A DNA stretch of 64,000 nt, taken from the NCBI GenBank assembly GCA_903878115.1, contig CAIRGO010000280.1:1-64000 (forward strand). Direction: 5' to 3'. Within the stretch, counting starts at the first letter, position 1; each line of letters starts with the position of its first letter. A program made the position numbers and the translations under genes. The stretch comes from Akkermansiaceae bacterium (GTDB lineage: Bacteria > Verrucomicrobiota > Verrucomicrobiia > Verrucomicrobiales > Akkermansiaceae). Below, piece after piece: positions 1 to 64,000 of the stretch. The notes under the pieces were generated by a model. It had not been told where the DNA came from, made no database searches, and saw nothing but the letters and a program-made list of their open reading frames with translations.

Positions 1-1
1 C

Positions 2-382
2 ACACTGATTTCAGGAAATCAAGCAACCATCGATGCGCACAATGCAAAATTGTTAGATGATCCGATGACGGGGACCTTGGGTGAACTTGGTTTTGGTACG
101 CAGGTTCTGCCAGTCTCAGGTGCGGATATTCAGGATGAAAAGGTGCTTGGCACCTGCCACATGGCCACGGGACGTGATGACCATCTCGGCGGTGACATTT
201 TGCCATCGATGTTTAAAAAACATGAAAACTCGACGCATGATGACATCCTCTTTGCACCACATAAAACTCCCAATTTTAATATCAGCCAGGTGCGCATGAA
301 GCGTGGCGATCAGGAGGAGATTATCATCGAAAACTTCCGTCCCAGCCGCTATGTGATGAATGCTCTCACAGCAGAATCATAA
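2..382 (+). CDS. Partial CDS (5' end outside window); aminopeptidase M29/leucyl-aminopeptidase-like C-terminus
   Basis: Frame stays open upstream of the listed ORF to the window edge (..TLISGNQATIDAHNAKLLDDP..). GELGFGTQ..DEKVLGTCHMATGR..GGD..HDD resembles the M29 aminopeptidase metal-site region; by-eye only. Confidence 0.45.
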   Translation, partial: TLISGNQATIDAHNAKLLDDPMTGTLGELGFGTQVLPVSGADIQDEKVLGTCHMATGRDDHLGGDILPSMFKKHENSTHDDILFAPHKTPNFNISQVRMKRGDQEEIIIENFRPSRYVMNALTAES

Positions 383-417
383 TTGATACTAAACTCATAG
401 TAGTAAGAGAGAAATTC

Positions 418-1164
418 GTGCCATCATCTAACATTTACGAGTCACCACGGTTACTCGATGAATATCTTCTTTTTCATTATGCGAAAGAATCAGAGATCTT
501 GCCCACGAGTGAAATTCCTTACCCCTCTGCGATGCGCGAGGCACTGGGCTTTACGCAGCGCACGGTAGGGCATTTCGACAACAAGCCTGTGGCGCATGGG
601 CTCGACCTTGGATGTGCCGTGGGGGCATCGACATTTGCCATGGCAGAGAACTGTGCTGCTGTGATAGGGATAGATTTCTCCCATGCCTTCATCAACGCCG
701 CTGATCGACTGCGTTGTGGCGAAGTCATTTCATTTCATCGCCATGATGAAGCGATGCTGCAGAAAATTCTTTCGACAAATGTGATCGCTACGGAATTGCG
801 CGAAAAAGTAAATTTCGAGCAAGGTGACGCGATGAATCTACGTGCAGATCTCGGGGGATTTGACCGTGTTCATGCCGCAAATTTACTCTGTCGATTGACA
901 AACCCTAACGATTTGTTAGAAAAATTTCCCTCGTTAGTTAAACTAGGTGGGGAGCTCATCATCGCCACGCCGTGCACGTGGTTACAAGAATTTACCCCGC
1001 CGCAACATTGGCCTGCACCTGATACTTTTTCTTGGCTACGGAAACAGTTAGAAAAAAATTTCACCTTAGAGCTTTCTACCCACGAGCCATTTCTGATTCG
1101 CGAGACGGCAAGGAAATTTCAGTGGTCGCTCTCGCAACTTACTAAGTGGAGAAGGCATGCATAA
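418..1164 (+). CDS. SAM-dependent methyltransferase resembling the OvoA C-terminal (putative 4-mercaptohistidine N1-methyltransferase) domain
   Basis: LDLGCAVGASTF SAM motif, GIDFSHAFI, GDAMNLRADLGGFDRVHAANLLCRL, TPCTWLQEFTPPQHW; matches remembered OvoA C-terminal family pattern. GTG start. Confidence 0.6.
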   Translation: MPSSNIYESPRLLDEYLLFHYAKESEILPTSEIPYPSAMREALGFTQRTVGHFDNKPVAHGLDLGCAVGASTFAMAENCAAVIGIDFSHAFINAADRLRCGEVISFHRHDEAMLQKILSTNVIATELREKVNFEQGDAMNLRADLGGFDRVHAANLLCRLTNPNDLLEKFPSLVKLGGELIIATPCTWLQEFTPPQHWPAPDTFSWLRKQLEKNFTLELSTHEPFLIRETARKFQWSLSQLTKWRRHA

Positions 1165-1200
1165 AAAAAGGGTTTCGCACTGCCATGCGAAACCCTCTCG
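1163..1200 (-). terminator. Rho-independent terminator, mainly for the minus-strand ThuA gene
   Basis: Perfect 10-bp inverted repeat GGGTTTCGCA (1170-1179) / TGCGAAACCC (1185-1194) with A7 on + strand (T7 on - strand) at 1163-1169. Confidence 0.75.
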
Positions 1201-1223
1201 TAAATTTTGCTAGTAAAGCGCTA

Positions 1224-6636: not shown

Positions 6637-7242
6637 ATGCAAGCACTCACACCATTGATCATCGCCACCCGCAATCCACATAAAACCATGGAAATTCGTG
6701 AAATGATTGCGACGCAATACGAGGTGCTCGATGCCACGAATTTTTCCGATTGGCCGGAAGTGGAGGAAACGGGTACGACATTTCTCGAAAACGCCACCCT
6801 GAAGGCCGTGGCGATTAGCCAGTGTGTCGATGGTATCGTGCTGGCCGATGATTCGGGATTGATCGTGGATGGGCTCGATGGTGCTCCTGGTGTGTGGTCA
6901 TCTAGTTACGGCGGCGAAGAAGGCAATCATGCCAAAAACAATCAACGCTTGTTGTTAGAAATGACGGATGTGCCCGAAGCAAAACGCAGTGCTAGGTTTG
7001 CCTGCACCATGGTGTTGGCGCAGGGTGGTCGCGTATTGGCGGATTTTCAGGGGATGGTAGAAGGTCGTATTTTGCATGATCTATCCGGGGTGGAGGGCTT
7101 TGGTTACGATCCACTATTTGCTCCGCTCGGTTATGATCGGTCATTCGCGGAACTGGGCAGCGAAATCAAAAATACACTCAGTCATCGCGCCGCAGCATTG
7201 CAGCAAGTCATCGCTTGGCTTTCTTCTGGAAATCCTTTATAA
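6637..7242 (+). CDS. rdgB: RdgB/HAM1 family XTP/dITP diphosphatase
   Basis: LIIATRNPHKTMEI, VLADDSGLIVDGLDGAPGVWSS, GYDPLF, SHRAAAL. Confidence 0.92.
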   Translation: MQALTPLIIATRNPHKTMEIREMIATQYEVLDATNFSDWPEVEETGTTFLENATLKAVAISQCVDGIVLADDSGLIVDGLDGAPGVWSSSYGGEEGNHAKNNQRLLLEMTDVPEAKRSARFACTMVLAQGGRVLADFQGMVEGRILHDLSGVEGFGYDPLFAPLGYDRSFAELGSEIKNTLSHRAAALQQVIAWLSSGNPL

Positions 7243-7251: not shown

Positions 7252-7764
7252 ATGCGTATTGTGACATTTTTTTGCTTAGTAATTTTTTCTTTGTGCCAAA
7301 GCGCGTGCTTCCAAGTGAAAGCGAAAGAGCCTGTCGTCTATAAATTTGAACATGGACGCACAGCACTATTGCGTGATGGTCTCGCCTATGCTCCGAAAAA
7401 CGCGCCAAAGGCTGTGATCAAGGCAATCGCTGCAGGCAATCGACTGCAGGGAAAACCATACAAATGGGGCGGTGGACATGCCTGTTTTAATGATACGGGC
7501 TATGATTGCTCGGGGACCTGCTCGTATGTGCTGCGCGAGGCTGGGTTGATCAATGGTTGCCTTACTTCGCGTGGATTTCTCGACTTTGGAAAACGTGGCG
7601 AAGGAAAATGGATCACGCTATATTCGCGTAACGGTCATGTTTTCATGACTGTCGCTGGACTGCGTTTAGATACTGGTGGTGATGGTTCACACTCGGGACC
7701 CAAGTGGAAGCCGTGGCGTCGTGGCGTGGGCGGTTATATCATGCGTCATCCATCTGGATACTAA
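7252..7764 (+). CDS. NlpC/P60-like peptidoglycan hydrolase
   Basis: Lipoprotein-like N-terminus; GKPYKWGGGHACFNDTGYDCSGTCSYVLREAG; GHVFMTVAGL. Confidence 0.7.
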   Translation: MRIVTFFCLVIFSLCQSACFQVKAKEPVVYKFEHGRTALLRDGLAYAPKNAPKAVIKAIAAGNRLQGKPYKWGGGHACFNDTGYDCSGTCSYVLREAGLINGCLTSRGFLDFGKRGEGKWITLYSRNGHVFMTVAGLRLDTGGDGSHSGPKWKPWRRGVGGYIMRHPSGY

Positions 7765-8443
7765 ACTCCGCGACGACTTCTGCGAGTGATCCCCAGATGC
7801 GGTCAGCTTGGGAGAAATCCAAGCAGTTAGTCACACGATTTGGCACCGCCCACACTGGCATCGATGCCGCATGGGCGGAAATCACGCCATTGAGTGAATC
7901 TTCGATCACTAAGCAATGAGCAGGATTGAGGGAAAATCTATGCGCGGCAGCAAGATAGAGATCAGGTGCTGGTTTGATGTGAGGTGCATCACCTCGACAA
8001 ATCACATGGTCAAAATACCGAGTGAGATGCAGTTTGTCTAACCAGCCGTCCACCCAATGATGTGAGGAACTCGATACCACCGCGCAGGGGATTTGATGAG
8101 CCGTAAGCAAATCTAACAAATCAATCACGCCAGGCATGGCTCCCTCTTCCGATAACTCGGCGACGATTTCTTGTTGTCGCAGTTTGTCTAACATATTCCA
8201 ATCGAATTGTTTTCCCGTCAATTCTTCCAAGTAGGTTTTCGGCGACCACGTGGCAAAATCACTGCCGATACAGCGGGTGTAGATCGATAGCGGCAATTCC
8301 TGTCCCTCATGGGTAAAGCAATTTTTCCATGACTGGTAGATCGCCCACTCGGTATCCACCAAGATGCCATCAAAATCAAATAATACCGCGCTGACGTTCT
8401 TCACTCGCTCCGTGTGCCAAGATATGTCGCCCTTGGCAAACAA
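7739..8443 (-). CDS. HAD superfamily hydrolase (beta-phosphoglucomutase-like)
   Basis: AVLFDFDGILVDTE, VVSSSSHHW, KPAPDLYLAAA, VIEDSLNGV. True start may be internal. Confidence 0.85.
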   Translation of the reverse strand: MFAKGDISWHTERVKNVSAVLFDFDGILVDTEWAIYQSWKNCFTHEGQELPLSIYTRCIGSDFATWSPKTYLEELTGKQFDWNMLDKLRQQEIVAELSEEGAMPGVIDLLDLLTAHQIPCAVVSSSSHHWVDGWLDKLHLTRYFDHVICRGDAPHIKPAPDLYLAAAHRFSLNPAHCLVIEDSLNGVISAHAASMPVWAVPNRVTNCLDFSQADRIWGSLAEVVAEFSIQMDDA

Positions 8444-8512: not shown

Positions 8513-9457
8513 ATGGAAAATCAACCTACCCATGACCAAAAGTCCTACCGCGAACAAATGAACGTGATGTGGATCTCGTTAGTCGTGGCATTTGTGCTGT
8601 TAGTTCTAAAAGTCTGGGCGGCAGAGGTGACAAATTCGTCGTCGCTCTATGCAGATGCCGCAGAGTCTGCGGTGCATTTCATCGCGGTTTGCATTGCGGT
8701 GCGTGCACTGCAATTGGCTCACAAACCTGCGGACGACGAGCACCACTTCGGGCATGATAAAGCAGCCTATCTTTCGGCGGGATTCGAAGGGGCGATGATC
8801 TCTACCGCTGCGCTGTTGATTTTCTATGAAGCGTCTCACCAATTCCACACGGGGGCAAAAATGGAAAGAATTGGCATCGGTGCCTCGATTGCTGGAGGTG
8901 CCGCATTCGTCAATGTGATTTTAGGACTAGCCTTGCTGCATATTGGTAAAAAACGTCAATCTCCGGTGCTGCGAGCGAATGGGCACCACGTGATGACAGA
9001 TGTGTACACCAGCGTTGCGGTGTTGGTGGCATTAGCGCTGGTTCATTTCACGCAGTGGCATTGGTGGGATCCGCTCGTGGCGATTCTTGCTGCTGCTAAC
9101 ATTCTTTATACTGGCATTAAGTTGATCAAAGAAAGTCTCGGCGGGCTGATGGATGCTGCCGAGCCTCAGACGGAGGCGAAAATCCGCACTTTGTTAGATT
9201 CTCTCGTCACAGAGCATCCGTTTACGTATCACCACCTTCGCCATCGCCACTCGGGTCACACCCATTGGGTCGAGTTGCATCTGGTCGTTGAAGATGAAAT
9301 GTCGGTGCTCCGCGCCCATGAAATCGCCACTTTGGTAGAGGAAAAAATTTCCGCACTGCTTGCTCCCTATGGTCGCATCATTACCCATCTAGAACCGCTT
9401 TCTGCGGAAGAGCATGATGAAGTGTGGGAAGGCCCGCGCATGCAGAGAAAAGAGTGA
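8513..9457 (+). CDS. Cation diffusion facilitator family transporter
   Basis: SSSLYADAAESAVHF, FGHDKAAYLSAGFEG, HHVMTDVYTSVAV, HxLxHRHSGH.WVELHLVV C-terminal domain. Confidence 0.85.
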   Translation: MENQPTHDQKSYREQMNVMWISLVVAFVLLVLKVWAAEVTNSSSLYADAAESAVHFIAVCIAVRALQLAHKPADDEHHFGHDKAAYLSAGFEGAMISTAALLIFYEASHQFHTGAKMERIGIGASIAGGAAFVNVILGLALLHIGKKRQSPVLRANGHHVMTDVYTSVAVLVALALVHFTQWHWWDPLVAILAAANILYTGIKLIKESLGGLMDAAEPQTEAKIRTLLDSLVTEHPFTYHHLRHRHSGHTHWVELHLVVEDEMSVLRAHEIATLVEEKISALLAPYGRIITHLEPLSAEEHDEVWEGPRMQRKE

Positions 9458-14077: not shown

Positions 14078-15370
14078 ATGAAAAAATCGATACTATTTAT
14101 CGCCACATTCTTCTTCACCCAGTTGGTATTCTGTGAGGAAAACGCCAAGCCGAATGTGATCCTTATCTTATCCGATGATCAGGGCTTTACCGATTATGGA
14201 TTCATGGGACACAAGATTGTCAAAACGCCAAATATCGACCGCATGGCATCGCAAAGCATGCTCTACACCCGCGGTTACGTCATGCCTGTGTGTTCGCCAT
14301 CCCTGGCGATTTTACTAACGGGGAAAATGCCTCACGTGAATGGGATTACGGGAAATGATTTGAGTAAAAAAACTACGGGTGCAGAGAAGCCCAAAGGCCC
14401 TGGTGATCGCTCGCCGCTAGCACATCAACTATTAGGCAACTCGATGATTTTGCCCAAGGCTTTAACGGCGAATGGCTATCTAACATTTCAAAGCGGCAAG
14501 TTATGGAATGTCACGGCCACAGAGGTTGGCTTCACGACTGGTATGACCAATAAAGAAGGTCGCCATGGCGGTGATGGTCTCGATATTGGACGTAAAACAA
14601 TGAAGCCGATGTTCGATTTTATGGACAACGCGCAATCTCAGAAAAAACCATTTTTCGTCTGGTATGCGCCGATGTTGCCACACCAACCGCACAATCCACC
14701 GCAGGAATTGTTAGCCCATTACCAAGGCAAAGGGCTAAGCGTTAAAGCGGCTACTTACTATGCGATGGTCGAGTGGTTTGATCAAACCTGCGGTCAACTC
14801 GATGACTATCTAACGAAAAATAAACTCGCCGATAATACTGTGATCATCTACATGGCCGATAACGGATGGGACGCAGAAGAGGGCAATCGCGCCAAACTTT
14901 CCCCCTACGAACTAGGCATCCGTACACCGATGTTTGTGCGCTGGCCGAAAAAGGTAAAACCAATGCGCGATGAGGAAACACTCGCCTCGATCATCGACTT
15001 CGTGCCGACGGTGCTCAACGCATGCGGCATGAAAGTCCCCAGCGATCTTCCTGGGATTGATCTAACAAATCGCCAAGCAATGACCGCTCGGAAATCTGTC
15101 TTCGTCGAATCCTACACCCACGACATCGCCGCCCTCGGTCAGCCTGAAAAAAGCCTAGTAGCACGAGTCGTCATCAACGGTTGGTCGAAGCTGCTCATTC
15201 CCGGACAAGTCAACCTCGATAAAACTTTCTCATCTTCCCCATCAGCCATCGAGTTATTTGATCTGAAATCTGACCCGATGGAAAAAAACGATCTTTCAGC
15301 CAAGAATCCAGAGGAAGTCACGCGACTCAAAGCTCTGCAAAATGCTCAATGGGATGCGCAGAAAAAATGA
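14078..15370 (+). CDS. Secreted sulfatase with atypical CSPSL motif
   Basis: NVILILSDDQGFTDYGFMGH, MPVCSPSLAILLTGKMPH, YMADNGWD, ELFDLKSDPMEKNDL. Confidence 0.85.
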   Translation: MKKSILFIATFFFTQLVFCEENAKPNVILILSDDQGFTDYGFMGHKIVKTPNIDRMASQSMLYTRGYVMPVCSPSLAILLTGKMPHVNGITGNDLSKKTTGAEKPKGPGDRSPLAHQLLGNSMILPKALTANGYLTFQSGKLWNVTATEVGFTTGMTNKEGRHGGDGLDIGRKTMKPMFDFMDNAQSQKKPFFVWYAPMLPHQPHNPPQELLAHYQGKGLSVKAATYYAMVEWFDQTCGQLDDYLTKNKLADNTVIIYMADNGWDAEEGNRAKLSPYELGIRTPMFVRWPKKVKPMRDEETLASIIDFVPTVLNACGMKVPSDLPGIDLTNRQAMTARKSVFVESYTHDIAALGQPEKSLVARVVINGWSKLLIPGQVNLDKTFSSSPSAIELFDLKSDPMEKNDLSAKNPEEVTRLKALQNAQWDAQKK

Positions 15371-19456: not shown

Positions 19457-20179
19457 ATGGCTCGATTTTTCCTCTCTGCGGATTCCTGGACACAGGGTTC
19501 CACACTCGACGAGGAGCAATCGCGCCATTGCTCGCAGGTGTTGCGAAAGCAAGCGGGTGATCCTGTCACAGTGTTTGATGGTCTGGGGCGTTTTGCCCAA
19601 GCGAGGATCACAGCAGTGAAAAAAAACGCTGTGTTATTGGAGATCGGTGAAATTCAATACGCAGAGAAATCCACGCCTGAGATCATTTTAGCACAAGCTA
19701 TTCCCAAGGGGAAAACCATGGATTGGATCGTGGAAAAAGCCGTAGAGTTGGGAGTGAGTCGCATCATCCCTCTGATTACTCGCTACACCGTCGTCAAATA
19801 TGATGCTAGCGAGGCTCCGCGCAAAGCCGAAAAGTGGCAGAAGATCGCGATGGAAGCTTGCAAACAGTGCGGTCAAAATTGGATGCCAATCGTGGAAACT
19901 CCTATCGACTGGAACTACTACATCAATCGTAGTAATGATGGATTAAAAATTATTGCATCTCTCGCTGACGGAGCAACTTCACTGCGAGAATTGTTAGAAA
20001 AAAATTTCACCCCACAACAAGCTACGATTTTGATCGGCCCAGAAGGTGATTTCACCAGCGAAGAAACCGCAGCAGCGATTAACCAAGGATTTCATCCCGT
20101 GACACTCGGCGATATTGTCCTGCGAACAGAGACAGCTTCCTTGTTTTGTTTGGCGGTGGTGCGTTGTCGTTATTTATGA
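19457..20179 (+). CDS. rsmE: 16S rRNA (uracil1498-N3)-methyltransferase
   Basis: HCSQVLRKQAGD, QAIPKGKTMDWIVEKAVELGVSRIIPL, IGPEGDFTSEE, LGDIVLRTETA. Confidence 0.93.
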   Translation: MARFFLSADSWTQGSTLDEEQSRHCSQVLRKQAGDPVTVFDGLGRFAQARITAVKKNAVLLEIGEIQYAEKSTPEIILAQAIPKGKTMDWIVEKAVELGVSRIIPLITRYTVVKYDASEAPRKAEKWQKIAMEACKQCGQNWMPIVETPIDWNYYINRSNDGLKIIASLADGATSLRELLEKNFTPQQATILIGPEGDFTSEETAAAINQGFHPVTLGDIVLRTETASLFCLAVVRCRYL

Positions 20180-25210: not shown

Positions 25211-25749
25211 TCATGCGAGATTGCTTAGTTGAGAAATCGTTGCCTTCACAAGCAGATCAAAGCCAGTGAAAGAGCCTTCGGCAAAATTACTGGCACTAAA
25301 GTAACGCGGAACTGCCGTTGTTTGCAGATCTAACAATTCATCCCATTGTTGTACGATTTGTGGCGAGGCGAGTTCTGCACGATGATACTGAAACATCATC
25401 GGCACATCGCGAATATCGAGGCCGCGTTTTTGCAGCGCATCGGCTGTTTTGATCATGGCCTCTAGGCTATCCTGTATGCGTGTAGGGTTAATATCGATCA
25501 TCATCAATACCGCATCGGCATTGCTGAGTAACATTTCATATATTCCCCCGTATTGCACTTTTCCGGTTAACGTATGAACACTCAGATCATAAGGTTCTTC
25601 TTCGGCATTGTTCGCGGGAACAACATAGTCAAGAGGTAATACATCTAACCAGCCGACCTTGTAATCACGCAGCTGTGCTTGCGGATTGCTGGAGCGAGTG
25701 CTCTAGTAAACTCAGCCTTGCCACAATTCGCAGGGCCTGCAATCACCAT
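25211..25749 (-). pseudogene. Frameshifted MglA-like small GTPase
   Basis: N-terminal P-loop segment MVIAGPANCGKAEFTRALAP.. (25749-25645, one frame) and C-terminal part QLRDYKVGWLDVLPLDYVV..SVHTLTGKVQYGGIYEMLLSNADAVLMMID..VPMMFQYHRAEL (open 25702-25211, another frame). The second half aligns by eye to MglA (H.YTVPGQ.FY...ADGVVFVAD...PYVVQYNKRDL). Confidence 0.6.
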
Positions 25750-26844: not shown

Positions 26845-27384
26845 TTATTCAAAAGTTTTTAATTGTTTACGAATGGCCATCTTGGCTGCGGGAGATAAAC
26901 GATCTAGGAATAACACTCCATCCAAGTGATCGATCTCATGCTGAAAGGCCCGAGCTAGCAGTCCGTCTGTCTCCAACGTGACTGTCTGCCCATCGAGTTG
27001 CTGAAAGCTGACGCGGACGATCGATGGACGACCGACCGGAGCACGCACGCCGAGAATACTAAGGCATCCTTCTGTTTCGATGGTGCGCGGACCATCCAAC
27101 TCCAGAACTGGATTGATAAATACCAACGGCATGTGATCCATCATATCCTCTTCCTTGCCATTGATTTTGAGAAAAGTAATGCATTCAGGATCGTGCGATA
27201 CGTCGATGCAAGCGATACGTAGCGGCACGCCGATTTGTGGTGCTGCTAGCCCTACGCCGTGCGCGGCATACATCGTCTCGATCATGCTTTCGGCAAGACG
27301 CATGATGTTTTCATCAATTTTCTCAATGCTTGCGCATTTTTCCCGCAACACAGGGTTGCCTAATTGCACTATATCTAACAACAT
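26845..27384 (-). CDS. def: Peptide deformylase
   Basis: GVGLAAPQIGVPLRI, EGCLSILGV, FQHEIDHLDGVLFLDRL. Confidence 0.95.
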   Translation of the reverse strand: MLLDIVQLGNPVLREKCASIEKIDENIMRLAESMIETMYAAHGVGLAAPQIGVPLRIACIDVSHDPECITFLKINGKEEDMMDHMPLVFINPVLELDGPRTIETEGCLSILGVRAPVGRPSIVRVSFQQLDGQTVTLETDGLLARAFQHEIDHLDGVLFLDRLSPAAKMAIRKQLKTFE

Positions 27385-27405
27385 TTTTCTAACAATTTAA
27401 TTGAT

Positions 27406-27831
27406 TTATGGTGGTGATGAATCCGTGGACATTTTTGCTCGCGTTGGCATGGCTTCGATCCCTAAGCGTTTGAGGGCACCCCAGATCTCGATCATTTTTC
27501 CAAATGGTGCTTTTTCATCAGCTTCGATTTCTAATTGCCGATTGGGATTGAGTTTTCTCCAAGCTTCCAAGTAAGAATCTAACAAATCATCTGGTACGGA
27601 TGCGCCTTCGAGGGCGATTTTCCCTATTCCATCGACAGCGAGAACAGACATCTCTTCGACGATCGTATCAGTAGGCACATCTTTTGCTGTGGGCAAGGTG
27701 ATCTGCATGACATGGCGCGGACGTTTGAAATTGGTGGAGACAATAAAAAAGATCAGCAAAATAAATAGAATGTCGATCATGGGAACGATCGGCACTCCTG
27801 AAGATTTACGGGCTGGTCGGGCGAATTGCAT
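27406..27831 (-). CDS. exbD: ExbD/TolR family biopolymer transport protein
   Basis: VPMIDILFILLIFFIVSTNF; adjacent to ExbB-like gene. Confidence 0.88.
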   Translation of the reverse strand: MQFARPARKSSGVPIVPMIDILFILLIFFIVSTNFKRPRHVMQITLPTAKDVPTDTIVEEMSVLAVDGIGKIALEGASVPDDLLDSYLEAWRKLNPNRQLEIEADEKAPFGKMIEIWGALKRLGIEAMPTRAKMSTDSSPP

Positions 27832-34028: not shown

Positions 34029-37000
34029 TCATGGGGCAGTGCGTAAATCTAAGGTGAAGGGAAAGACTGGATTTCTGAGCTCTTCGCTAGGATTCATCAT
34101 GCCAGGTGTGTGACCGAAGGCAAAAAAGCGTGCCATCCGGCGGCTCTCTGCTTCTGCGGCATTGACGGGAAAACGTTCATGGCTTAAGCCACCTTGGTGG
34201 GTGACATGATAGACGCAGCCTCCCATGCTGCGTTGTGTCCAGGTGTCGATGAGGTCAAATGTCAACGGCGCGTGAACCCCAATCATGGGTTGCAAACAGC
34301 TTGGCGGCTGCCAAGCACGGTAGCGCACTCCGGCGACGTATTCACCAGCGACGCCTGTTGGTTGAAATGGCAAACGCCGACTATTACAAGTGATCACGTA
34401 ACGGCGGTCAACCCAGCCAGTCACTTTCACCTGCATGCGTTCCAGTGAGCTGTCGACATAGCGCGCCGTGCCACCAGCGCTGGTCTCTTCGCCGAGCACA
34501 TGCCACGGTTCTAAGGCGGTGCGCAGTTCTACGTGAATGCCTTGTTGATCAAAACTACCAATCAACGGGAATCGGAATTCGGCGTGTGGGGCGAACCACT
34601 CTGCATTCATTTCATAGCCATCGCGTTTTAAGTCGTCGATCACATCGGAAAAATCCTGCCAAACAAAATGCGGCAGCATGAAGCGGTCATGCAGTTCCGT
34701 GCCCCATCGTGCCAATGGCAAATGGTTAGGTTTTTTCCAAAATCTCGCCACCGAAGCTCGGATGAGCAGTTGCTGTGCTAAGCTCATGCGCTCATGAGGC
34801 GGCATTTCAAAGGAACGCAATTCCACTAATCCGTGTCGTCCAGTGCTGCTGTCTGGGGAAAACATTTTATCGATACAAAATTCCGCGCGGTGTGTGTTTC
34901 CTGTTAGATCGACTAGCAAGTGGCGGAAGACGCGATCGACCATCCATGGCGGCACGGGTTCATGATCGGGAATTTGACTAAAGGCGATTTCCATTTCGTA
35001 AAGCGCATCATCACGCGCTTCATCCACACGCGGATGCTGGCTGGTCGGACCAATGAATAGTCCGCTGAATAAGTAGCTCAGTGATGGATGATTGTGCCAA
35101 TATCCGAGTATGGAACGAAGCACATCGGGACGTCGTAAAAATGGCGAATCTGCAGGAGTAACACCGCCGAGGACGATGTGATTGCCTCCACCAGTTCCAG
35201 TATGGCGTCCATCTAACAAAAACTTCTCTGTGCCCAGTCGGCAGGCGCGCGCTTCATCATAGAGGGTTGTGGTATTACTCACCAATTCTTTCCAATTGGC
35301 TGCAGGTTGTAAATTTACTTCGATCACACCAGGGTCTGGCGTGATTTTGAAATATTGCAATCGGGTGTCGAATGGTGGTGCCTCGCCCTCGATCACTACG
35401 GGTATTTGCAGTGCCTTAGCAACTTCTTCGATCGCGTGAGAAAGTTCTAAAAATTCTTCCGCAGATTGCAGCGGTGGTAGGAATAAATGTAGTCGTCCTT
35501 CGCGTGGTTCGAAGCACATGGCGCGACGAACGATCCACGGCGCTGACTCGCCCGCTTGCGGAACACGCGCTACGGTTTCGGGCAAATACTCTGCCATTTT
35601 TTCGATCCATTGATCAAGAGCTGTCGAGGTTTTTTCACCCTGTGGCGATAGTGTTGCGGGGATATAAGATATCGATGACGCTAACGATTTTAGCATCTGT
35701 TGACGAGGCGCGGGGCGGCTTGGCAACTTTGCGCGATCTACCATCGGATCATCGGGAACATAGAAGGGGAATTCTTCTTCCTTCACCCACGGCAGAGAAT
35801 CTAACGGCAATCGATAACCCATCGGTGAGTCTCCCGGCACCAGAAACATGTGCTCATCGCGCAGGAACCAACGACCAGTTTTCCATGAGACTTTTCCTTT
35901 TTCCGTGGTGGCTTGCAAGGGCAGTGCATAACCGATGCATGATCCTAGACCGTCGTGAAAAACTCTCGCCAATTGTGCCCGCTCTAGTGGGTCTTTGAGG
36001 TTGTTTTTTAACGGGTCAACATTTGCCGGAAGTCGTTTTTCTCGCCATAGATAGTAATAAATATCTTCGTAGGCGGGGATGAGGCAACTAGGTTCGATAC
36101 CTAGATAATGCGCTAATAAAAGTGCGAATTTTTGCGCATCTTTTTCGCTGTGTTGATAGGATTTTTGCTCGTCAGCGATCAGCGAATCGTCATGCCAAAT
36201 GGGGACGCCATCTTTTCGCCACCAGCAGCCCAGTGCCCAGCGCGGTAGTGGTTCACCCGGATACCATTTGCCCTGACCGTAATGCAGAAAACCTCCGGGA
36301 GAAAATTTGTGTCGCAGTTTTTTGATCAACTGACCAGACAGCAATCGTTTTGTGGGTCCCATGGCCGCGGTGTTCCATTCGTCGCCGTCCATGTCATCAA
36401 TGCTCACAAAGGTAGGCTCGCCACCCATCGTTAAGCGCACATCGTTTTTCGTTAGCTCACCATCAATCGCGATGCCTAATTTTTCGATCGCTTGCCATTG
36501 ATCTTCTGTGTAGGGGAGTGAAACGCGAGGTGTCTCTTTCGCGCGCACGACTTTCATGTCGAAAGAAAACTCGCATTCGCAGGGCTCTAGTCCGCCGTCG
36601 ATGGGCGATGCACTCGATGGATCAGGCGTCGCTGCTAACGGAATATGTCCTTCACTGGCAAACAAGCCAGAAGTAGGATCCAGACCTACCCAGCCAGCAC
36701 CAGGTAGGAAAACTTCGCACCACGCATGCAAATCGGTGAAGTCTTCCTCGGGACCATTCGGACCATCTAACGATTTTTGGTCAGATTTTAGTTGAATCAA
36801 ATACCCACTAACAAAACGTGCGGCATAGCCAAGATTGCGGAACACTTGGCACATGAGCCAAGCCGTATCCCGACACGAACCAGTGCCTTTTTCTAACGTT
36901 TCTTCAGGTTCTTGCACGCCTGGTTCCATGCGAATCATGTACTTGATATCGCTGAATAATCGCGAGTTCAGCGATACCAGAAAATCAATCGTGCGGAAAG

Positions 37001-39459: not shown

Positions 39460-40287
39460 ATGGCTCAACTCGGTGATTATACCTCATTACCCATTCTTAA
39501 ATTCCGCAGCACAGGCTTGTATCTGGATGCTGGGGATCTTGGGGAGATTTTACTGCCGGGAAATGAAGTGACACCTGACCTGCAAGTGGGCGGTGAAGTG
39601 GAGGTATTTCTCTATCTTGATTCTGCCGATCGCCCCATCGCCACTCGCCGCAAACCGATTGCCATGCCAAGTGAGATCGCGCGACTCGACTGCGTGGCGA
39701 TCAATGACATCGGCGCGTTTCTGAACTGGGGACTCGCCAAAGAATTGTTAGTGCCTTTCCGTGAGCAGAGCAAGCCGATGATCGTGGGGCGCCATTATGT
39801 GGTGAAAATTCTCATCGATGAAAAAAGTGGCCGATTCGTGGGTAGTCAGCGCATCAATCGTTTCCTCACGAGTGCCGCCGCAATTTACCGTGATGGTGAT
39901 CGCGTGCAGGCCTTGCCTTGGGGGAAAACCGAACTTGGTTACAAAGTCGTGGTCGATGGCAAGTACAACGGCCTCATTTTTGCTAGTGAAGTTTTTCAGC
40001 CCGTCAACTACGGCGAAATGATCACTGGTTACGTGCGTGAAACTCGCAACGATGGCAAACTAGACATCACGCTCACTCTGCAAGGACGCAAAAAAATCTC
40101 GCCGATGGCGGATCAATTGTTAGAAAAAATCCAACAAGATGGTGTAATCAAGCTCACCGATAACAGCCCCGCCGAGGCGATCAAAAAACAGCTCAATATG
40201 AGCAAAAAATCCTTTAAACAAGCCGTCGGATTGCTCTATAAGCAAAAGAAAATCGTTATCGAGGCCGATCACATTCGCATTGCTTGA
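39460..40287 (+). CDS. cvfB: CvfB/YitL-like S1 RNA-binding protein
   Basis: EILLPGNEV..L.VGGEVEVFLYLDSADRPIATRRKP, INDIGAFLNWGLAKELLVPF, winged-helix C-terminus. Confidence 0.85.
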   Translation: MAQLGDYTSLPILKFRSTGLYLDAGDLGEILLPGNEVTPDLQVGGEVEVFLYLDSADRPIATRRKPIAMPSEIARLDCVAINDIGAFLNWGLAKELLVPFREQSKPMIVGRHYVVKILIDEKSGRFVGSQRINRFLTSAAAIYRDGDRVQALPWGKTELGYKVVVDGKYNGLIFASEVFQPVNYGEMITGYVRETRNDGKLDITLTLQGRKKISPMADQLLEKIQQDGVIKLTDNSPAEAIKKQLNMSKKSFKQAVGLLYKQKKIVIEADHIRIA

Positions 40288-40430
40288 TGTTTGGTGTGTG
40301 AATCTAACAATTCAAAGGAAGCGATATTTTGACAGGATGACTGAATTTTTAAGATTTACAGAATTAGCATGTAAATCATGAGCAGTGGGTTCAGTGGTCA
40401 AAAGTGGTTCATGGGATTTTACCCACTCGC

Positions 40431-48442: not shown

Positions 48443-48486
48443 TTCATCGATCATCTAACAACTTTTTTTATTTAGATAATTTCCTA

Positions 48487-48601: not shown

Positions 48602-50758
48602 ATGCAACCACAAAATTCACAAAGCGAAGCCGCTCTCCATGCTGTCGATTACTGGCAGGTAGTTAAAAATCGTTATGGAGTTATTCTGATGACTTTGCTG
48701 TTGGTTTTTATGACCGCTGCCGTGATCACTTATGTGATGCCGAAAAAATACGAAAGCACTGCCGTCGTGCAGGTGAAGCCATCAACGAAAACAATCCAAG
48801 TATTTGGAAATGAAACAGTTGGCGCTGCGCAAATGACACCACAGTTTTTTGCCACAGAATTTGAGGTCATTCGTTCACAGTTAACGCTTAAAGTTGTAGT
48901 GCAGCAGTTAGGTCTTGTTTCTCGCTGGGGCATGACAGAAGAGGAAGCACTGGGCACTCTGAGAGCAATTGTTGACGCACAAAATATTCGTGGCACAGAT
49001 TTGATTACGATCAGTGTCAAGCATACAGGCCCAGTTGATGCGCGTGATGTGGCCAAGGAAGTTTACGAGGCCTACAAAACACGTCGTGAATCGAAAGAAT
49101 CAGAAGCGGCAGAATCGGGTTTGAAAGAATTAGAAAAAGCTTTGCAATCGCAATCGGATGTGGTGGAGGAAAAACGCAAACAACGCGACAACTTGCTACG
49201 TCGTGCTCCTCAGACGATCGTCGATAACTATTTGAAAATGAATGCAGTTGGAGGAACGGAATCCATGAAAGCCAAGTTGGAAGGCGAATTGCAAGAGGCT
49301 CAATCTGCGATCGGAATGATTGACGCTAAAATTGCTTCGATTTCGCCTCTGACATCAGAGGAATTGATACGTCAAGCTGCGAATGATGAACTCGCGGGTG
49401 GGGATCTGAAAACACTTTATCCAGAATACCAAGAGCAACAGCGTTTGTTAGATGGAATGAAGGTACAGGGTTTGGGGCGCAACCATCCTACGGTGAAAGC
49501 TCAAGCTCAGTCTGTTGAAAGTATCTACAAACAGTTATTGGCGAGCTGCATTTCCTTTAAGGATTCGTTAAAATTGAAACGTGAGCAGCGTGTCGCGGAA
49601 CATGCAGAGTTGAAAAAACGCCTGAGTGAACTTACCGAGTTATCTGTCAACGAGCGGGTTCTTCTTTACGGCTTAACAGCGGCGCAAAATGATTTTGAAA
49701 CAACACAAGGGATGCTCGATAAAATGAAAGAGCGTCTGAGCACGGAGCGCATCAATATCAAGCAACCTAAAAATTTGATCGAACTTCATGAAGAACCTTT
49801 GGTCTCACAGTATCCAGTGAGCCCAAATGTTACCCTCAACTTAATTTTAGGAGCAGTCGTAGGTCTGATCTTTGGCATTGGCATCGCGTTCTTCCTTGAA
49901 TACCTCGATACCTCGGTGAAAACGCTTGAGGATGTGGAGCGTTATTTGCAAGTTCCTGTGCTTGCCGTGATTCCGAAAGAAGTGGGTATCTTGCATAAAC
50001 AAAGTGGCATGAGTCCTGATGCTGAGGCCTATCGAATTCTGCGAACCAACATTGAGTTCAATCGGAAAAATCCGGAGGATAACTCCCTTACCGTTGTTTC
50101 CGGCGGTGCTGGTGAAGGAAAATCTACGACTCTCGTTAACCTTGCCTACATTTGTGCGCAAGGTGGTTACACGACGCTGATGATCGATGCCGACTTACGC
50201 CGCCCTCGTTTGCACACTTTCTTCGATATCAATAACTCGGTGGGACTCACGAATTATCTCACTACCGAGTTGATGTTAGAAGACGTAATTCTGCAAACTC
50301 CTGTGGATAACTTGTTCTTCATGCCATCGGGTATTTTGCCCGCAGATGCCGCGGGTATCTTGAACTCACGCCGGATGTCAGAGCTCATTCAAGATGTGAA
50401 ACAGCGCTTCGACCTAGTTCTCGTTGACTCACCGCCGATCCTAGGTGTGAGCGATGCCTCTGTGCTTGCAAGTGAAGTAGATCTAACCATGATCGTGGTG
50501 CAACATCGCAAACTTCCTCGTAACATGCTCCTGCGCGTGAAACAATCTGTTGAAAACGTTGGTGGCAACGTTATTGGCGTGGTGCTCAACAACGTTGATG
50601 TTCGCAGTGATAGTCAGTATCAATACTACACTAGCTATTATACCTACTATGCACCTGCGGAAAGCCAAATGTCTGCTCCACAGGCACCTACACCCAGTCG
50701 TGTATCAACTCCAACACCTAACACTAAACCTTCAGGATCTAACGATCAATTGTACTAA
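48602..50758 (+). CDS. Wzz-type chain-length regulator fused to BY-kinase (polysaccharide biosynthesis tyrosine autokinase)
   Basis: Wzz N-terminus; VVSGGAGEGKSTTLVNLA (Walker A), LMIDADLRRPRLH (Walker A'), LVLVDSPPI (Walker B); Tyr-rich tail YQYYTSYYTYY. Confidence 0.93.
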   Translation: MQPQNSQSEAALHAVDYWQVVKNRYGVILMTLLLVFMTAAVITYVMPKKYESTAVVQVKPSTKTIQVFGNETVGAAQMTPQFFATEFEVIRSQLTLKVVVQQLGLVSRWGMTEEEALGTLRAIVDAQNIRGTDLITISVKHTGPVDARDVAKEVYEAYKTRRESKESEAAESGLKELEKALQSQSDVVEEKRKQRDNLLRRAPQTIVDNYLKMNAVGGTESMKAKLEGELQEAQSAIGMIDAKIASISPLTSEELIRQAANDELAGGDLKTLYPEYQEQQRLLDGMKVQGLGRNHPTVKAQAQSVESIYKQLLASCISFKDSLKLKREQRVAEHAELKKRLSELTELSVNERVLLYGLTAAQNDFETTQGMLDKMKERLSTERINIKQPKNLIELHEEPLVSQYPVSPNVTLNLILGAVVGLIFGIGIAFFLEYLDTSVKTLEDVERYLQVPVLAVIPKEVGILHKQSGMSPDAEAYRILRTNIEFNRKNPEDNSLTVVSGGAGEGKSTTLVNLAYICAQGGYTTLMIDADLRRPRLHTFFDINNSVGLTNYLTTELMLEDVILQTPVDNLFFMPSGILPADAAGILNSRRMSELIQDVKQRFDLVLVDSPPILGVSDASVLASEVDLTMIVVQHRKLPRNMLLRVKQSVENVGGNVIGVVLNNVDVRSDSQYQYYTSYYTYYAPAESQMSAPQAPTPSRVSTPTPNTKPSGSNDQLY

Positions 50759-50776
50759 TTCTAACAAAAAAACATT

Positions 50777-57452: not shown

Positions 57453-58826
57453 TTAAGACAAAAAATGGGTCAAGATTTCCTCGAAAATATCTTCTGCCGC
57501 AGAGATATTTATACGAGCTCCTAGAGCGATTGCTTGTTCTCCCGGTGGGACTTCACTGCGACCGTGTGAGCCTTTGACAGTCCTCGAATCTAATGGGATT
57601 ACTTCCATCAGCGCACGGAATCCGAGTTTTTTCTTAAGTAAAAACTGGGCGATTTTGATTTTGGGAAAAGCTATGGATGGATCAAGAAAAAGTTCGGCAG
57701 GATCGTAGCCTGGTTTGCGATGAATATCCACTGTGCGAGCGTAGTCAGGGGCACGTTCGTCATTCTCCCAGAAGTAATAGGTGAACCATGCGCCCGCTTT
57801 GGCAATGGCGATGAGATCACCTGCGCGTTCGGTAGCGATTCCTGGAGACCAGATTTCTTCGGCATGCAAAACTTTTTCTACCCCGGGAACATCTTCTAAC
57901 AATTTCTTTACTTCATCGATGCGATGTTTCTCGCGAACATAAACATGTGCAATTTGATGATCAGCTACGGCAAAAGCATCCGACATAAAGACATCCAATC
58001 CATCACGACCGAGTTCATCTTTGATTGATAGAAAACCTGCCGTACGCAAAGCGCGGTTGAGGTGAATTGGTTGATTGACCGCAGAAATTCCGTATTCGGA
58101 GACGATGATTACACGTACATTGTTTCGTTGATAAAAGTCTAACAACTCGCCAACAATGGCATCGATATCGCGCAATTCTTGAGCGATTTCAGGAGCCTCT
58201 GGACCGTATTTTTGGAGGCTGTAGTCAAGGTGTGGTAGATAAACGAGACTCAACTGTGGGGCATTGTGATTTTCGATCCACTGAGCGGAGCGTGAAATCC
58301 ATTGCGAGCAGCCAATGCCAGCGGCTGGCCCCCAAAAGCTAGGAAAGGGGAACTCACCCAGATCAGCTTTGATGGCTTCTCGTAAGTTCATCGGCTGCGT
58401 ATGAATATCGAACGATTTTTTGCCATCGGCCAAATATAAGGGGCGCGGTGTGATGGTGATGTCAGCGGTACTTTCCATGTTATACCACCAAAAAAGATTG
58501 GCGCACTTAAATCCGGTTATGCGTTGATGCAAAACATCCCAGATTTTTTCGCCATGGACCAAGCGATTGCTCTGTTTCCAAAATTTGACCTCGCAGGATT
58601 CCCGATCATGCCACCCGTTGGCTACGATGCCGTGGCCGCTGGGATTTTTTCCTGTTAGCATATTTGACTGCGCCGTGCACGTCACTGCCGGGAATGCTGG
58701 TGGGAATGATTGCACTCCTTGTTCCGTAGCAAATCGCGAGAGTCGCGGAGTCGCTTCTCCGAGCAATCCCGAAGATAGTCCGACCACATTGATGACTGCA
58801 AGACGCTGCACGGGGGCGACTGTCAT
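57453..58826 (-). CDS. Nucleotide pyrophosphatase/phosphodiesterase (alkaline phosphatase superfamily)
   Basis: INVVGLSSGLLG, FPAVTCTAQSNMLTGKNPSGHGIVANGW, YLPHLDYSLQKYGPE, VSEYGI, KGSHG. Confidence 0.85.
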   Translation of the reverse strand: MTVAPVQRLAVINVVGLSSGLLGEATPRLSRFATEQGVQSFPPAFPAVTCTAQSNMLTGKNPSGHGIVANGWHDRESCEVKFWKQSNRLVHGEKIWDVLHQRITGFKCANLFWWYNMESTADITITPRPLYLADGKKSFDIHTQPMNLREAIKADLGEFPFPSFWGPAAGIGCSQWISRSAQWIENHNAPQLSLVYLPHLDYSLQKYGPEAPEIAQELRDIDAIVGELLDFYQRNNVRVIIVSEYGISAVNQPIHLNRALRTAGFLSIKDELGRDGLDVFMSDAFAVADHQIAHVYVREKHRIDEVKKLLEDVPGVEKVLHAEEIWSPGIATERAGDLIAIAKAGAWFTYYFWENDERAPDYARTVDIHRKPGYDPAELFLDPSIAFPKIKIAQFLLKKKLGFRALMEVIPLDSRTVKGSHGRSEVPPGEQAIALGARINISAAEDIFEEILTHFLS

Positions 58827-59207: not shown

Positions 59208-59226
59208 TTTTATCTAACTATTTTTT

Positions 59227-60630
59227 ATGAATCTTTCTTCTCAATCTATTGCATCTTTGCGTGCTATGCTCGTAAAAGGTGAAATTCAATCCACGGATAT
59301 TGTCGATGAATTGTTAGAAAATGTTACTCAACGCGATGCGGAAATTGGCGCGTTTTTATCGATTGATGCCGTCGCGATTCGTGCCGCTGCCGCAAAAGCA
59401 GATCTTTCCTTGCCACTGGGCGGGATACCGATTGCGATGAAAGATAACATAAATGTGCTAGGCGACCCTTGCACTTGTGGCTCTAAATTTCTCGCAGAAA
59501 ATTATCACTCTCCCTATGATGCCGGCGTCACTCGTCGATTACGTTCTGCGGGTGTTGTTTTTTTTGGACGCACGAACATGGATGAATTTGCCATGGGCTC
59601 AGCTACAGAAAACTCCGCTTTGCAACGGACAAATAACCCTGCTGCTCTGGGGCATATTCCTGGTGGGTCTTCTGGCGGTTCAGCTGCAGCAGTCGCGGCG
59701 CATTTTTCTCCTGCTGCCATAGGGTCAGATACTGGTGGTTCGATTCGTCAACCAGCTTCGCATTGCGGAGTGGTAGGGCTGAAGCCATCTTATGGTCGCG
59801 TTTCTCGTTATGGCTTGGTTGCTTTTGCTTCTTCGTTGGATCAGATCGGTCCGCTATCTCGAACTGTGGAAGATGCCGCGATCATCCTACAAGCAATTGC
59901 AGGACATGATCCGTTAGACTCGACTAGTCTGCCATTACCAGTGCCAAATTATCTTACGAATTTGCATCAAGGTGTGAAAGGGTTACGCATCGGTATTCCC
60001 AAAGAATATTTTGCAGCTGGCCTTGCTTCGGTTGTGCGTGAGGCAGTTGAAAAAGAAATTGTTCGATTGCAGGAACAGGGAGCTATACCCGTAGAAATTT
60101 CTTTGCCGCATACGGAATACGCAGTCGCGACTTATTACATCATCGCCCCTGCGGAGGCATCTTCCAATCTATCGCGCTTCGATGGTGTTCGCTATGGTCA
60201 TCGTGCCGCCAATCCTGCTGATATTTTGTCGCTATATCAACGATCGCGCGAAGAAGGTTTCGGACCTGAAGTGAAGCGGCGGATCATTTTGGGTACCTAT
60301 GTTTTATCCTCTGGTTACTATGACGCCTATTACAATAAAGCCCAAAAAGTACGCACATTGATTCGCAAAGATTTTGAAAATGCCTTCGCTTTCTGCGATG
60401 CCATCATTTCTCCCGTCGCGCCCACTGCTGCACGCAAAATTGGCGAATGCACAGATCCGGTGCAGGACTACTTGGCGGATGTTTGCACCATTCCTGTGAA
60501 TCTAGCAGGGCTTCCTGCGATCTCCGTTCCATTGCCGAGCGATGGGTTACCGATTGGATTGCAGATTATCACGCCGCATTTACAAGAATCACTATTATTG
60601 CAAATTGCACAGGCCGTAGAAAATCGTTAG
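59227..60630 (+). CDS. gatA: Asp-tRNA(Asn)/Glu-tRNA(Gln) amidotransferase subunit A
   Basis: IPIAMKDNINVLGDPCTCGSKFL, GGSSGGSAAAVAAHFSPAAIGSDTGGSIRQPASHCGVVGLKPSYGRVSRYG amidase signature. Confidence 0.96.
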   Translation: MNLSSQSIASLRAMLVKGEIQSTDIVDELLENVTQRDAEIGAFLSIDAVAIRAAAAKADLSLPLGGIPIAMKDNINVLGDPCTCGSKFLAENYHSPYDAGVTRRLRSAGVVFFGRTNMDEFAMGSATENSALQRTNNPAALGHIPGGSSGGSAAAVAAHFSPAAIGSDTGGSIRQPASHCGVVGLKPSYGRVSRYGLVAFASSLDQIGPLSRTVEDAAIILQAIAGHDPLDSTSLPLPVPNYLTNLHQGVKGLRIGIPKEYFAAGLASVVREAVEKEIVRLQEQGAIPVEISLPHTEYAVATYYIIAPAEASSNLSRFDGVRYGHRAANPADILSLYQRSREEGFGPEVKRRIILGTYVLSSGYYDAYYNKAQKVRTLIRKDFENAFAFCDAIISPVAPTAARKIGECTDPVQDYLADVCTIPVNLAGLPAISVPLPSDGLPIGLQIITPHLQESLLLQIAQAVENR

Positions 60631-62962: not shown

Positions 62963-63011
62963 CTTGTTCATATGATCCAATGTTGATTGAAATAACGTAT
63001 TAGTTGTTGTA

Positions 63012-63695
63012 ATGAAATATTCTTTGCTCACCTTTTTACTGGCTACAATTTCCCTTACCTTCACATCTGAAGCGGGCCTATCGCGCACTACGAGTGATCG
63101 AATTTTTGCACGATTGAATCAGAATACTGATGCTGTTCTTGATGTGGGAGAGTTTGCGAGAATGATGGGGGAGAAGTTCCCATCTCTTACAGGATTTTCT
63201 CTGCGCACTTATCGTGAATTCTTTCGTGTTGATGCGGATCAAATTAGCGGCATTAGCCAAGAAGATTTTTTTCGCTGGAATCGTGGTGACACCAGAGAAT
63301 TAGCAGGTGAGACTATCGAGCGTTTTATTCGAGCAGATCGCAATCATGACAAAGTTCTTGATGCGCGAGAGTTGCCCTGGGCTTACAAACAAAAATTGTC
63401 CAAAAGAAAAGTAGCTGCAGAGATCAAACGCCTCGATTTAGATGATGACGGGAAATTATCGCTAAAAGAATTTTTTCAGTTTCTGCCGATGGAATGCAAA
63501 ACCTTTCTTGGCATGAAAAAAAATGATGCCGATCTGTTAACGTCGGCATTAGGCATTAGCACTTTTGTCTGGCGTGAAGATGATATTGCATATCCTTACG
63601 ATCCTGTTTTCGGTGAGCCTCAGCCATTGTTTTTCTTTGGCTTAAATGGTGGAGTGATCACAAATTGCTCGATGAGGCTCACGATTCAGCAGTGA
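63012..63695 (+). CDS. Secreted EF-hand domain protein
   Basis: Signal peptide; EF loops DRNHDKVLDARE and DLDDDGKLSLKE plus more degenerate ones. Confidence 0.8.
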   Translation: MKYSLLTFLLATISLTFTSEAGLSRTTSDRIFARLNQNTDAVLDVGEFARMMGEKFPSLTGFSLRTYREFFRVDADQISGISQEDFFRWNRGDTRELAGETIERFIRADRNHDKVLDARELPWAYKQKLSKRKVAAEIKRLDLDDDGKLSLKEFFQFLPMECKTFLGMKKNDADLLTSALGISTFVWREDDIAYPYDPVFGEPQPLFFFGLNGGVITNCSMRLTIQQ

Positions 63696-63747
63696 TTGTA
63701 TTTGGTTTGTCTTCTCTGAACGCTTTGTATATCGTGACGAAGAGTTC

Positions 63748-64000
63748 ATGGACGAATCCGAATATAAAAAAAGAACCCGATTTGTCATTCAATTGGGTAA
63801 TGCTCTTCACGGTTGTGGTGCTTCAAGCCAACGAGTAGAAAAGCACTTAGGTAATGTAACAAGAATGCTGGAAATGAATGGGCATTTTATGTTTACGCCT
63901 ACAGGTCTTACTAGCGTATTTTGGTTAGATGATGAATTTGATCAGTATGTTCACATCGAGCGTGTGGAGCCTGGCGATATCAATTTAGGTCGTTTATGGA
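63748..64000 (+). CDS. Partial CDS (3' end outside window): threonine/serine exporter ThrE-like N-terminal domain
   Basis: MDESEYKKRTRFVIQLGNALHGCGASSQRVEKHLGNVTRMLEMNGHFMFTPTGLTSVFW..IERVEPGDINLGRLW, open to window end; absent from the supplied ORF list because no stop is reached. Confidence 0.65.
   Translation, partial: MDESEYKKRTRFVIQLGNALHGCGASSQRVEKHLGNVTRMLEMNGHFMFTPTGLTSVFWLDDEFDQYVHIERVEPGDINLGRLW

What the first reader, a model, noticed from the sequence alone, without database searches (positions are those of the whole stretch)
1..64000. Over-represented CTAAC/GTTAG word, strongest as octamer TCTAACAA/TTGTTAGA
Hand scan found 24 exact copies of the octamer: TTGTTAGA at 50, 913, 6952, 9191, 19991, 24781, 40117, 49445, 59311; TCTAACAA at 8112, 15061, 21879, 25329, 27374, 27388, 27578, 31522, 32992, 35212, 40303, 48454, 50760, 57895, 58138. 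A uniform-base model gives about 2 in 64 kb on both strands. Most coding copies encode Leu-Leu-Glu/Asp as TTG-TTA-GAN in the sense strand. The same CTAAC core also appears in other frames and the opposite orientation: Leu-Thr as CTA-AC(N) at 14479, 15061 and 44136; Pro-Asn as CCT-AAC at about 24366, 24485 and 38145; Ser-Asn as TCT-AAC at 50741. It is also intergenic (19441, 27388, 40303, 48454, 50760, 59215). Use in all three codon frames plus non-coding DNA argues for a DNA-level preference rather than codon choice alone. Candidate explanations are an uptake or segregation-type sequence, a methylation-linked site, a nucleoid or termination signal, or a context-specific mutation/repair bias.
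Basis: partly seen in the sequence, partly recalled or inferred. Interest (0 to 1): 0.72.

Follow-up and report, generated by a model that had tools for sequence, protein, structure and literature searches.

The report
Genome-wide TTGTTAGA word in Verrucomicrobia
A short DNA word, TTGTTAGA, occurs about 14-18 times more often than it should throughout the genome of this Verrucomicrobia bacterium and its genus, inside and outside genes, and it is kept during evolution, which suggests that something in the cell reads it, although what reads it is unknown.

Summary
The window has exactly 24 copies of TTGTTAGA/TCTAACAA (two coordinates misprinted). The whole 4.41-Mb draft genome has 1090, against 169 for the reversed word. 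It is the most over-represented octamer under Markov orders 2, 3 and 4 (O/E 18.7, 10.7, 3.4).

It is not codon bias. With proteins and codon usage fixed, in-frame TTG-TTA-GA occurs 104 times against 7. Antisense coding copies are 19 against 3. Strictly non-coding DNA pooled over the own genome and relatives has 24 against 2.5-2.9.

The motif is graded: a strict GTTAG core with soft flanks (YT- before, R after). Sites are randomly spaced and have no replication-strand polarity. The word is enriched throughout the genus, in some sister genera and in one genome of another family. It is at or below its control in most other genomes of the class.

In a sister-species pair, codon TTA is kept at 79% inside G-TTA-G but 32% elsewhere. 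No other leucine codon shows this effect.

Best reading: a chromosome-wide recognition word maintained by selection, of the general kind of HIP1, Chi or uptake sequences, with an unknown reader. Lack of polarity and the distribution of RecBCD/AddAB-like enzymes argue against a Chi site. A conserved ~430-aa methyltransferase-like ORF is an untested candidate reader.

The parts
50..57 (+). word copy TTGTTAGA, coding sense frame 0 (Leu-Leu-Asp)
913..920 (+). word copy, coding sense frame 0 in ORF 418-1164
6952..6959 (+). word copy, coding sense frame 0
8112..8119 (-). word copy, coding sense frame 0 in ORF 7739-8443(-)
9191..9198 (+). word copy, coding sense frame 0
15061..15068 (-). word copy, antisense in ORF 14078-15370(+), read there as xxT-CTA-ACA-Axx
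19991..19998 (+). word copy, coding sense frame 0
25329..25336 (-). word copy, coding sense frame 0
27374..27381 (-). word copy, coding sense frame 0 at the start of ORF 26845-27384(-)
27388..27395 (-). word copy, intergenic (21-bp gap between two minus-strand genes)
27578..27585 (-). word copy, coding sense frame 0
31522..31529 (-). word copy, coding sense frame 0
32992..32999 (-). word copy, coding sense frame 0
35212..35219 (-). word copy, coding sense frame 0
40117..40124 (+). word copy, coding sense frame 0
40303..40310 (-). word copy, intergenic
48454..48461 (-). word copy, intergenic
49445..49452 (+). word copy, coding sense frame 0 in a tyrosine-autokinase-like gene 48602-50758
50760..50767 (-). 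word copy, intergenic (18-bp gap)
57895..57902 (-). word copy, coding sense frame 0
58138..58145 (-). word copy, coding sense frame 0
59311..59318 (+). word copy, coding sense frame 0

Best explanation
TTGTTAGA (core GTTAG, preferred context YTGTTAGR with A/T neighbours) is a chromosome-wide DNA recognition word that is actively maintained in this clade of Verrucomicrobiales. SHOWN: DNA-level enrichment inside and outside genes, a graded core-plus-flank specificity, random spacing, no replication polarity, preferential retention between sister species, and patchy phylogenetic distribution. INFERRED: that a sequence-specific DNA-binding activity reads it in either orientation as an interchangeable mark of the native chromosome, that selection keeps a roughly constant density (about 1 per 3-4 kb in the host), and that individual sites turn over freely. 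The mechanism I commit to is a non-polar binding site used for chromosome organisation or self-recognition, working like cyanobacterial HIP1 or uptake words rather than like Chi or KOPS. The reader protein is not identified.
For: Genome-wide count 1090 against 169 for the reversed word. First-ranked 8-mer under Markov orders 2, 3 and 4 in 525 kb of the host, and under orders 2 and 3 in G005 and G003. Synonymous shuffle: sense frame 0 104 vs 7.1, antisense 19 vs 3.2; same trend in other genus members (58 vs 3.3; 8 vs 2.0) and in G020 (43 vs 1.5; 7 vs 1.6). Strict non-coding DNA, three genome sets pooled: 24 against 2.5-2.9, reversed word 5. Graded profile over NNGTTAGN from 17.7-fold for TTGTTAGA (296 vs 16.8 in 1.7 Mb) down to below 1. 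Over half of all Leu-Leu-Glu/Asp sites (104 of 200) use this one codon combination in the host, and the tripeptide itself is 1.23-fold (host) and 1.40-fold (G049) above dipeptide expectation. Sister pair G006/G002 (fourfold-site identity 0.66): TTA kept 22/28 in G_G context vs 20/62 elsewhere, p=7e-5; p=0.03 in the reverse direction; no other Leu codon shows a significant G_G effect in that pair. Poisson spacing and no paired sites. One 20-kb contig carrying a large DEAD-helicase/MZB gene and many small ORFs without Pfam matches has 0 words, and its TGTTAG count is near chance at 5 vs 3.8, as expected if acquired DNA lacks the word.
Against: No reader protein is demonstrated. Selection is not formally separated from a context-dependent mutation or repair bias. 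Sense coding copies are more enriched (14-30x) than antisense ones (4-6x) or intergenic ones (6-14x), which a strand-symmetric site does not explain. Word-level retention between distant relatives is not clearly above the base rate: 6 of 21 conserved LL(E/D) sites for the host against four relatives, with about 21-39% of such sites carrying the word in the comparison samples. Density is well below HIP1, which lies around 500-2500 per Mb in PMC4390886, against 247 per Mb here. Retention p-values rest on tens of codons.
Confidence: 0.42

Rival explanations
1. Methyltransferase-linked word, as proposed for HIP1. A clade-specific m6A/m4C methyltransferase modifies the GTTAG/CTAAC core, and the word accumulates through methyl-directed repair or because the mark is used.
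For: In a single PF01555 search of 21 chosen genomes, a ~425-480 aa ORF with the same two-part or partial methyltransferase match (C-terminal part of the model first) appears in all nine genus members tested and in G031 and G049, the latter from another family (both enriched). It is not found in the non-enriched same-family genomes G011, G016, G017, G022 and G024, nor in G037. HIP sequences co-occur with matching methyltransferases (PMC4390886).
Against: Enriched G020 and G033 show no such ORF at E<=0.001, and non-enriched G036 has a similar one. One family was tested, so the correlation is post hoc and weak by genus. The graded flank preference is unusual for an all-or-none methyltransferase site. 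Lake Biwa Verrucomicrobia methylomes (not this genus) show other motifs, ACGAG and AGGNNNNNRTTT (PMC6329791).
Confidence: 0.2
2. Context-dependent mutation or repair bias: replication or repair errors favour GTTAG in T/A-rich context, with no function for the word.
For: Enrichment in coding and non-coding DNA, random spacing and no polarity are all compatible. Higher retention could reflect low mutability.
Against: No 1-mismatch neighbour is strongly depleted, so there is no single source word. Sense coding, antisense coding and intergenic enrichments differ 3- to 6-fold, whereas a symmetric mutational process predicts equality. It must be specific to patches of the tree, including one genome of another family.
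Confidence: 0.16
3. DNA uptake (self-recognition) sequence for natural transformation.
For: Non-polar, genome-wide, single sites, dominant reading frame inside genes, absent from a likely acquired island.
Against: Enrichment (14-18x) and length (8 bp, graded) are far below the long near-perfect consensus of Neisseria or Haemophilus uptake sequences (own knowledge). No inverted pairs. No competence phenotype tested.
Confidence: 0.1
4. Chi-like recombination hotspot read by an AddAB- or RecBCD-type enzyme.
For: Octamer size, strict core with softer flanks and about 1 per 4 kb density resemble E. coli Chi (own knowledge). AddB-like PD-(D/E)XK proteins of ~930 aa occur in the genus.
Against: No leading-strand bias: 43 plus against 57 minus on two contigs whose + strand is leading by fourfold skew in every sampled segment. 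RecC is absent from the host and present in only two of 57 relatives, one enriched (G049) and one not (G022). The same word is enriched in G049, where RecC but no ~930-aa AddB-like hit was seen, so two different enzymes would have to share a site. AddB-like proteins also occur in non-enriched genomes.
Confidence: 0.08
5. Codon-pair or translational preference for TTG-TTA-GAN only.
For: 19 of 24 window copies and most genomic copies are sense frame 0.
Against: Antisense coding copies 19 vs 3.2, strict non-coding copies 24 vs 2.5-2.9, and the first-order codon-pair expectation is 42 against 104 observed.
Confidence: 0.04

Closest known systems
HIP1 (GCGATCGC) of cyanobacteria (PMC4390886)
   Same: Genome-wide over-represented octamer in coding and non-coding DNA, clade-specific, occasional related genomes without it, possible methyltransferase link.
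   Different: Here non-palindromic, AT-rich, graded flanks, roughly 2-10 times rarer, and in Verrucomicrobiales.
Chi sites (E. coli GCTGGTGG and AddAB/RecBCD equivalents)
   Same: Octamer with strict core, about 1 per 4 kb, frequent in coding strands.
   Different: No replication-strand polarity. RecC absent from the host. Word shared by AddB-like and RecC-bearing genomes.
DNA uptake sequences (Neisseria DUS, Haemophilus USS)
   Same: Non-polar, genome-wide, one dominant reading frame in genes, seemingly missing from an acquired island.
   Different: Much lower enrichment, short graded motif, no inverted terminator pairs.
KOPS / architecture-imparting sequences
   Same: Short chromosome-wide over-represented words.
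   Different: Those are strongly strand-polar; this one is not.

Membership tests
HIP1-class highly iterated word | Gross DNA-level over-representation genome-wide, coding and non-coding | tested here: met
HIP1-class highly iterated word | Palindromic | tested here: not met
   TTGTTAGA is not its own reverse complement and no paired inverted copies occur
HIP1-class highly iterated word | Cognate methyltransferase recognising the core | tested here: inconclusive
   ~430-aa PF01555-like ORF correlates partly, with exceptions G020, G033 and G036; no methylation data
Chi site | Leading-strand orientation bias | tested here: not met
   43+/57- on contigs with + leading strand; pooled 20-kb fragments 113 leading vs 82 lagging, small enough for base-composition skew to account for (inference)
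Chi site | Cognate RecBCD/AddAB present in step with the word | tested here: inconclusive
   RecC only in G022 and G049; ADDB_N model found in none of 57 genomes; AddB-like PDDEXK_1 proteins in enriched and non-enriched genomes
Chi site | Modulates the nuclease in vitro | not testable with these tools
   needs biochemistry
DNA uptake sequence | Very high enrichment of an extended (9-12 bp) consensus | tested here: not met
   8-bp graded motif, 14-18x; only weak A/T preference beyond 8 bp
DNA uptake sequence | Promotes uptake of DNA | not testable with these tools
   needs a culturable competent strain
KOPS / AIMS | Strand polarity toward the terminus | tested here: not met
VSP-type repair artefact | One source word depleted as the product word is enriched | tested here: not met
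   no 1-mismatch neighbour strongly depleted in seven genome samples

The most novel reading that the evidence does not exclude
A previously undescribed class of chromosome-wide mark: a non-palindromic, non-polar, graded 8-bp recognition word kept by selection in a clade of Verrucomicrobiales and shared patchily with another family, implying a dedicated and possibly horizontally transferable reader (DNA-binding protein or methyltransferase) unlike Chi, uptake or HIP systems.
Probability: 0.35. Interest if true: 0.78.

Novelty: new variant of a known kind. Interest (0 to 1): 0.6.

Why it matters
Only a few kinds of bacterial genome-wide words have known functions (recombination, uptake, segregation), and HIP1 has stayed unexplained for decades. 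A second, independent HIP1-like word in an unrelated phylum, with natural on/off contrasts between close relatives and a candidate methyltransferase gene to test, makes the question of why genomes accumulate such words directly testable. It also gives a simple marker of native versus acquired DNA in these uncultivated bacteria. It explains why leucine codon TTA persists in G-TTA-G context in genomes that otherwise use it little.

Tried and rejected
Codon-pair bias alone: rejected by antisense and strict non-coding counts. Replication polarity: rejected on G020 contigs. Clustering, inverted pairs or fixed spacing: none. Longer repeat or mobile element carrying the word: the repeat search of the window gave only one two-copy 35-nt direct match (one of whose copies holds a window word) and two imperfect inverted pairs, and flanks beyond 1-2 A/T-rich positions carry almost no information. 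Position within genes: roughly uniform, KS p=0.08. RecC and the AddB N-domain as tracking genes: no correlation. VSP-like single-source conversion: no depleted neighbour. Site-by-site retention at conserved Leu-Leu-Glu/Asp positions: too few sites, inconclusive. Literature search for a Verrucomicrobia uptake or over-represented word, or a GTTAG/CTAAC methylation motif: nothing found in the held library. A scan of loci already held found no copy of it. My gene calls are heuristic. At least one copy first classed as intergenic (window 913) lies in ORF 418-1164, which is why the strict non-coding count is the one to trust.

Full report
WHAT WAS CHECKED. The window is positions 1-64000 of contig C280 of a 4.41-Mb, 331-contig draft genome. 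Protein matches place it in Verrucomicrobiota, order Verrucomicrobiales, near MAGs labelled Akkermansiaceae (its alanyl-tRNA synthetase is up to 78% identical to theirs in the best segment). In the whole genome there are 1090 copies against 169 for the same letters read backwards.

STATISTICS. In 525 kb of the genome, TCTAACAA/TTGTTAGA is the most over-represented 8-mer under Markov order 2 (152 vs 8.1), order 3 (152 vs 14.2) and order 4 (152 vs 44.6). CTAAC/GTTAG is the top 5-mer (1024 vs 595) and CTAACA and TCTAAC are the top two 6-mers. Under the maximal order-6 model the octamer is only 1.14 times expectation (152 vs 133), because its 7-mers already carry the signal. The same octamer ranks first under orders 2 and 3 in two other members of the genus (G005, G003) and at or near the top in G020 and G049, while G031 prefers the variant CTGTTAGA.

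NOT CODON USAGE. Shuffling synonymous codons (proteins and codon usage kept) gives 7.1 in-frame TTG-TTA-GA; 104 are found. Antisense coding copies are 19 vs 3.2. A first-order codon-pair model gives 42. More than half of all Leu-Leu-Glu/Asp sites in the sample (104 of 200) use this single codon combination, and the tripeptide itself is in mild excess. In strictly non-coding DNA (no ORF of 70 aa on either strand) pooled over the host, four other genus members and G020 there are 24 copies against 2.5-2.9 expected and 5 of the reversed word. The preference therefore acts on DNA. An unexplained part remains: sense coding copies are more enriched than antisense or intergenic ones.

SHAPE OF THE MOTIF. 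Substitutions inside GTTAG abolish the excess; substitutions at the flanks weaken it by degrees (TTGTTAGA 17.7-fold, TTGTTAGG 8.7, GTGTTAGA 6.0, TTGTTAGT 5.7, CTGTTAGA and ATGTTAGA 5.3, TCGTTAGA 4.6). The pattern is repeated in seven genome samples. No 1-mismatch neighbour is strongly depleted, so the word is not made at the expense of one source word. Outside the octamer there is only a weak A/T preference.

ARRANGEMENT. Spacing is indistinguishable from random and there is no excess of inverted or direct pairs. Copies are spread over gene length. In G020, two long contigs have leading-strand skew on + in all sampled segments, yet the first 100 sites are 43 plus and 57 minus: no replication polarity. 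One 20-kb contig with a large DEAD-helicase/MZB gene and many small unmatched ORFs, plausibly an acquired defence-type island, has no copy and a near-chance TGTTAG count.

EVOLUTION. The word is enriched over its reversed control in all ten genus members and, among the relatives, in genera g10-g13 and more weakly g7 of the same family, plus one genome of another family (G049). In most other genomes of the class it is rarer than the control. Between the sister species G006 and G002 (fourfold-site identity 0.66), codon TTA is kept in 22 of 28 cases when flanked G-TTA-G but in 20 of 62 elsewhere (p=7e-5). The effect is present in the reverse direction (p=0.03) and for host versus G005 (p=0.003 and 0.007), is weaker and not significant for host versus G006, and no other leucine codon shows it in the sister pair. 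Sites are thus preferentially kept, though individual sites turn over.

MECHANISM. These properties describe an interchangeable, orientation-independent chromosome-wide mark with graded affinity, kept by selection: that is my best explanation (0.42). Chi is disfavoured (no polarity; RecC in only two relatives, one enriched and one not; the same word in genomes with different candidate enzymes). Uptake sequences are normally far stronger and longer (own knowledge). A methyltransferase link, the model proposed for HIP1 (PMC4390886), has a concrete but weak lead. A ~425-480 aa ORF with a consistent two-part or partial PF01555 match is present in all nine genus members tested and in the enriched outsiders G031 and G049, and not found in five non-enriched same-family genomes. 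Exceptions are G020 and G033 (enriched, not found) and G036 (not enriched, found). Its sequence could not be fetched. A context-dependent mutational bias is not excluded.

NOVELTY. No report of this word was found in the held literature. The Lake Biwa methylome study lists other motifs for its Verrucomicrobia (PMC6329791). The phenomenon belongs to the known kind 'functional or unexplained genome-wide oligomer', but differs from each described class in palindromy, polarity, strength or host, so I rate it a new variant of a known kind.

LIMITS. Gene calls are my own heuristics; the host is a draft MAG; about 0.5 Mb of it was examined base by base and the rest only by counting; retention tests rest on tens of codons; the taxonomic names of the comparison genomes are hidden.

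Noticed in passing
L056:10001-13657, L058:10001-13396 (also G007:C19 and alaS matches of similar extra length in L060, L061): Alanyl-tRNA synthetase genes of relatives carry an in-frame insert after about residue 415. In L058 it matches an IS200-like Y1 transposase (PF01797), and in L056 the insert contains an HFHLL motif flanked by repeated peptides containing DSGILPESSEK, as if a REP-associated transposase had been built into an essential enzyme without breaking the frame. The window's own alaS lacks it.
   Followed up: partly
G000:C100 near 42558-42770 and counterparts in G001-G007, G009, G031, G036, G049: Conserved ~430-aa methyltransferase-like ORF with permuted PF01555 match whose presence partly tracks the word.
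   Followed up: partly
L102 (G000:C23:1-20000): Word-free contig with a 1977-aa DEAD-helicase/MZB protein and many small ORFs without Pfam matches, looks like a defence-type genomic island.
   Followed up: partly
L115 (G000:C55) and L117 (G000:C65): Short contigs of higher GC (54-56%) with no word copies; L115 has almost no long ORFs. Possibly acquired or misbinned DNA.
   Followed up: no
L140-L146 (G049): Besides TGTTAG this genome is also enriched in TGTCAG and TGCTAG, as if the motif were TGYYAG there, and in AATGTCAG and CAGGGTCA.
   Followed up: no
window:1-64000: Several other frame-0 8-mers (GTGCCGAT, GCACTGCG, TTGCTGCG) exceed the synonymous shuffle 6- to 7-fold in the host sample and are unrelated to the word.
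   Followed up: no
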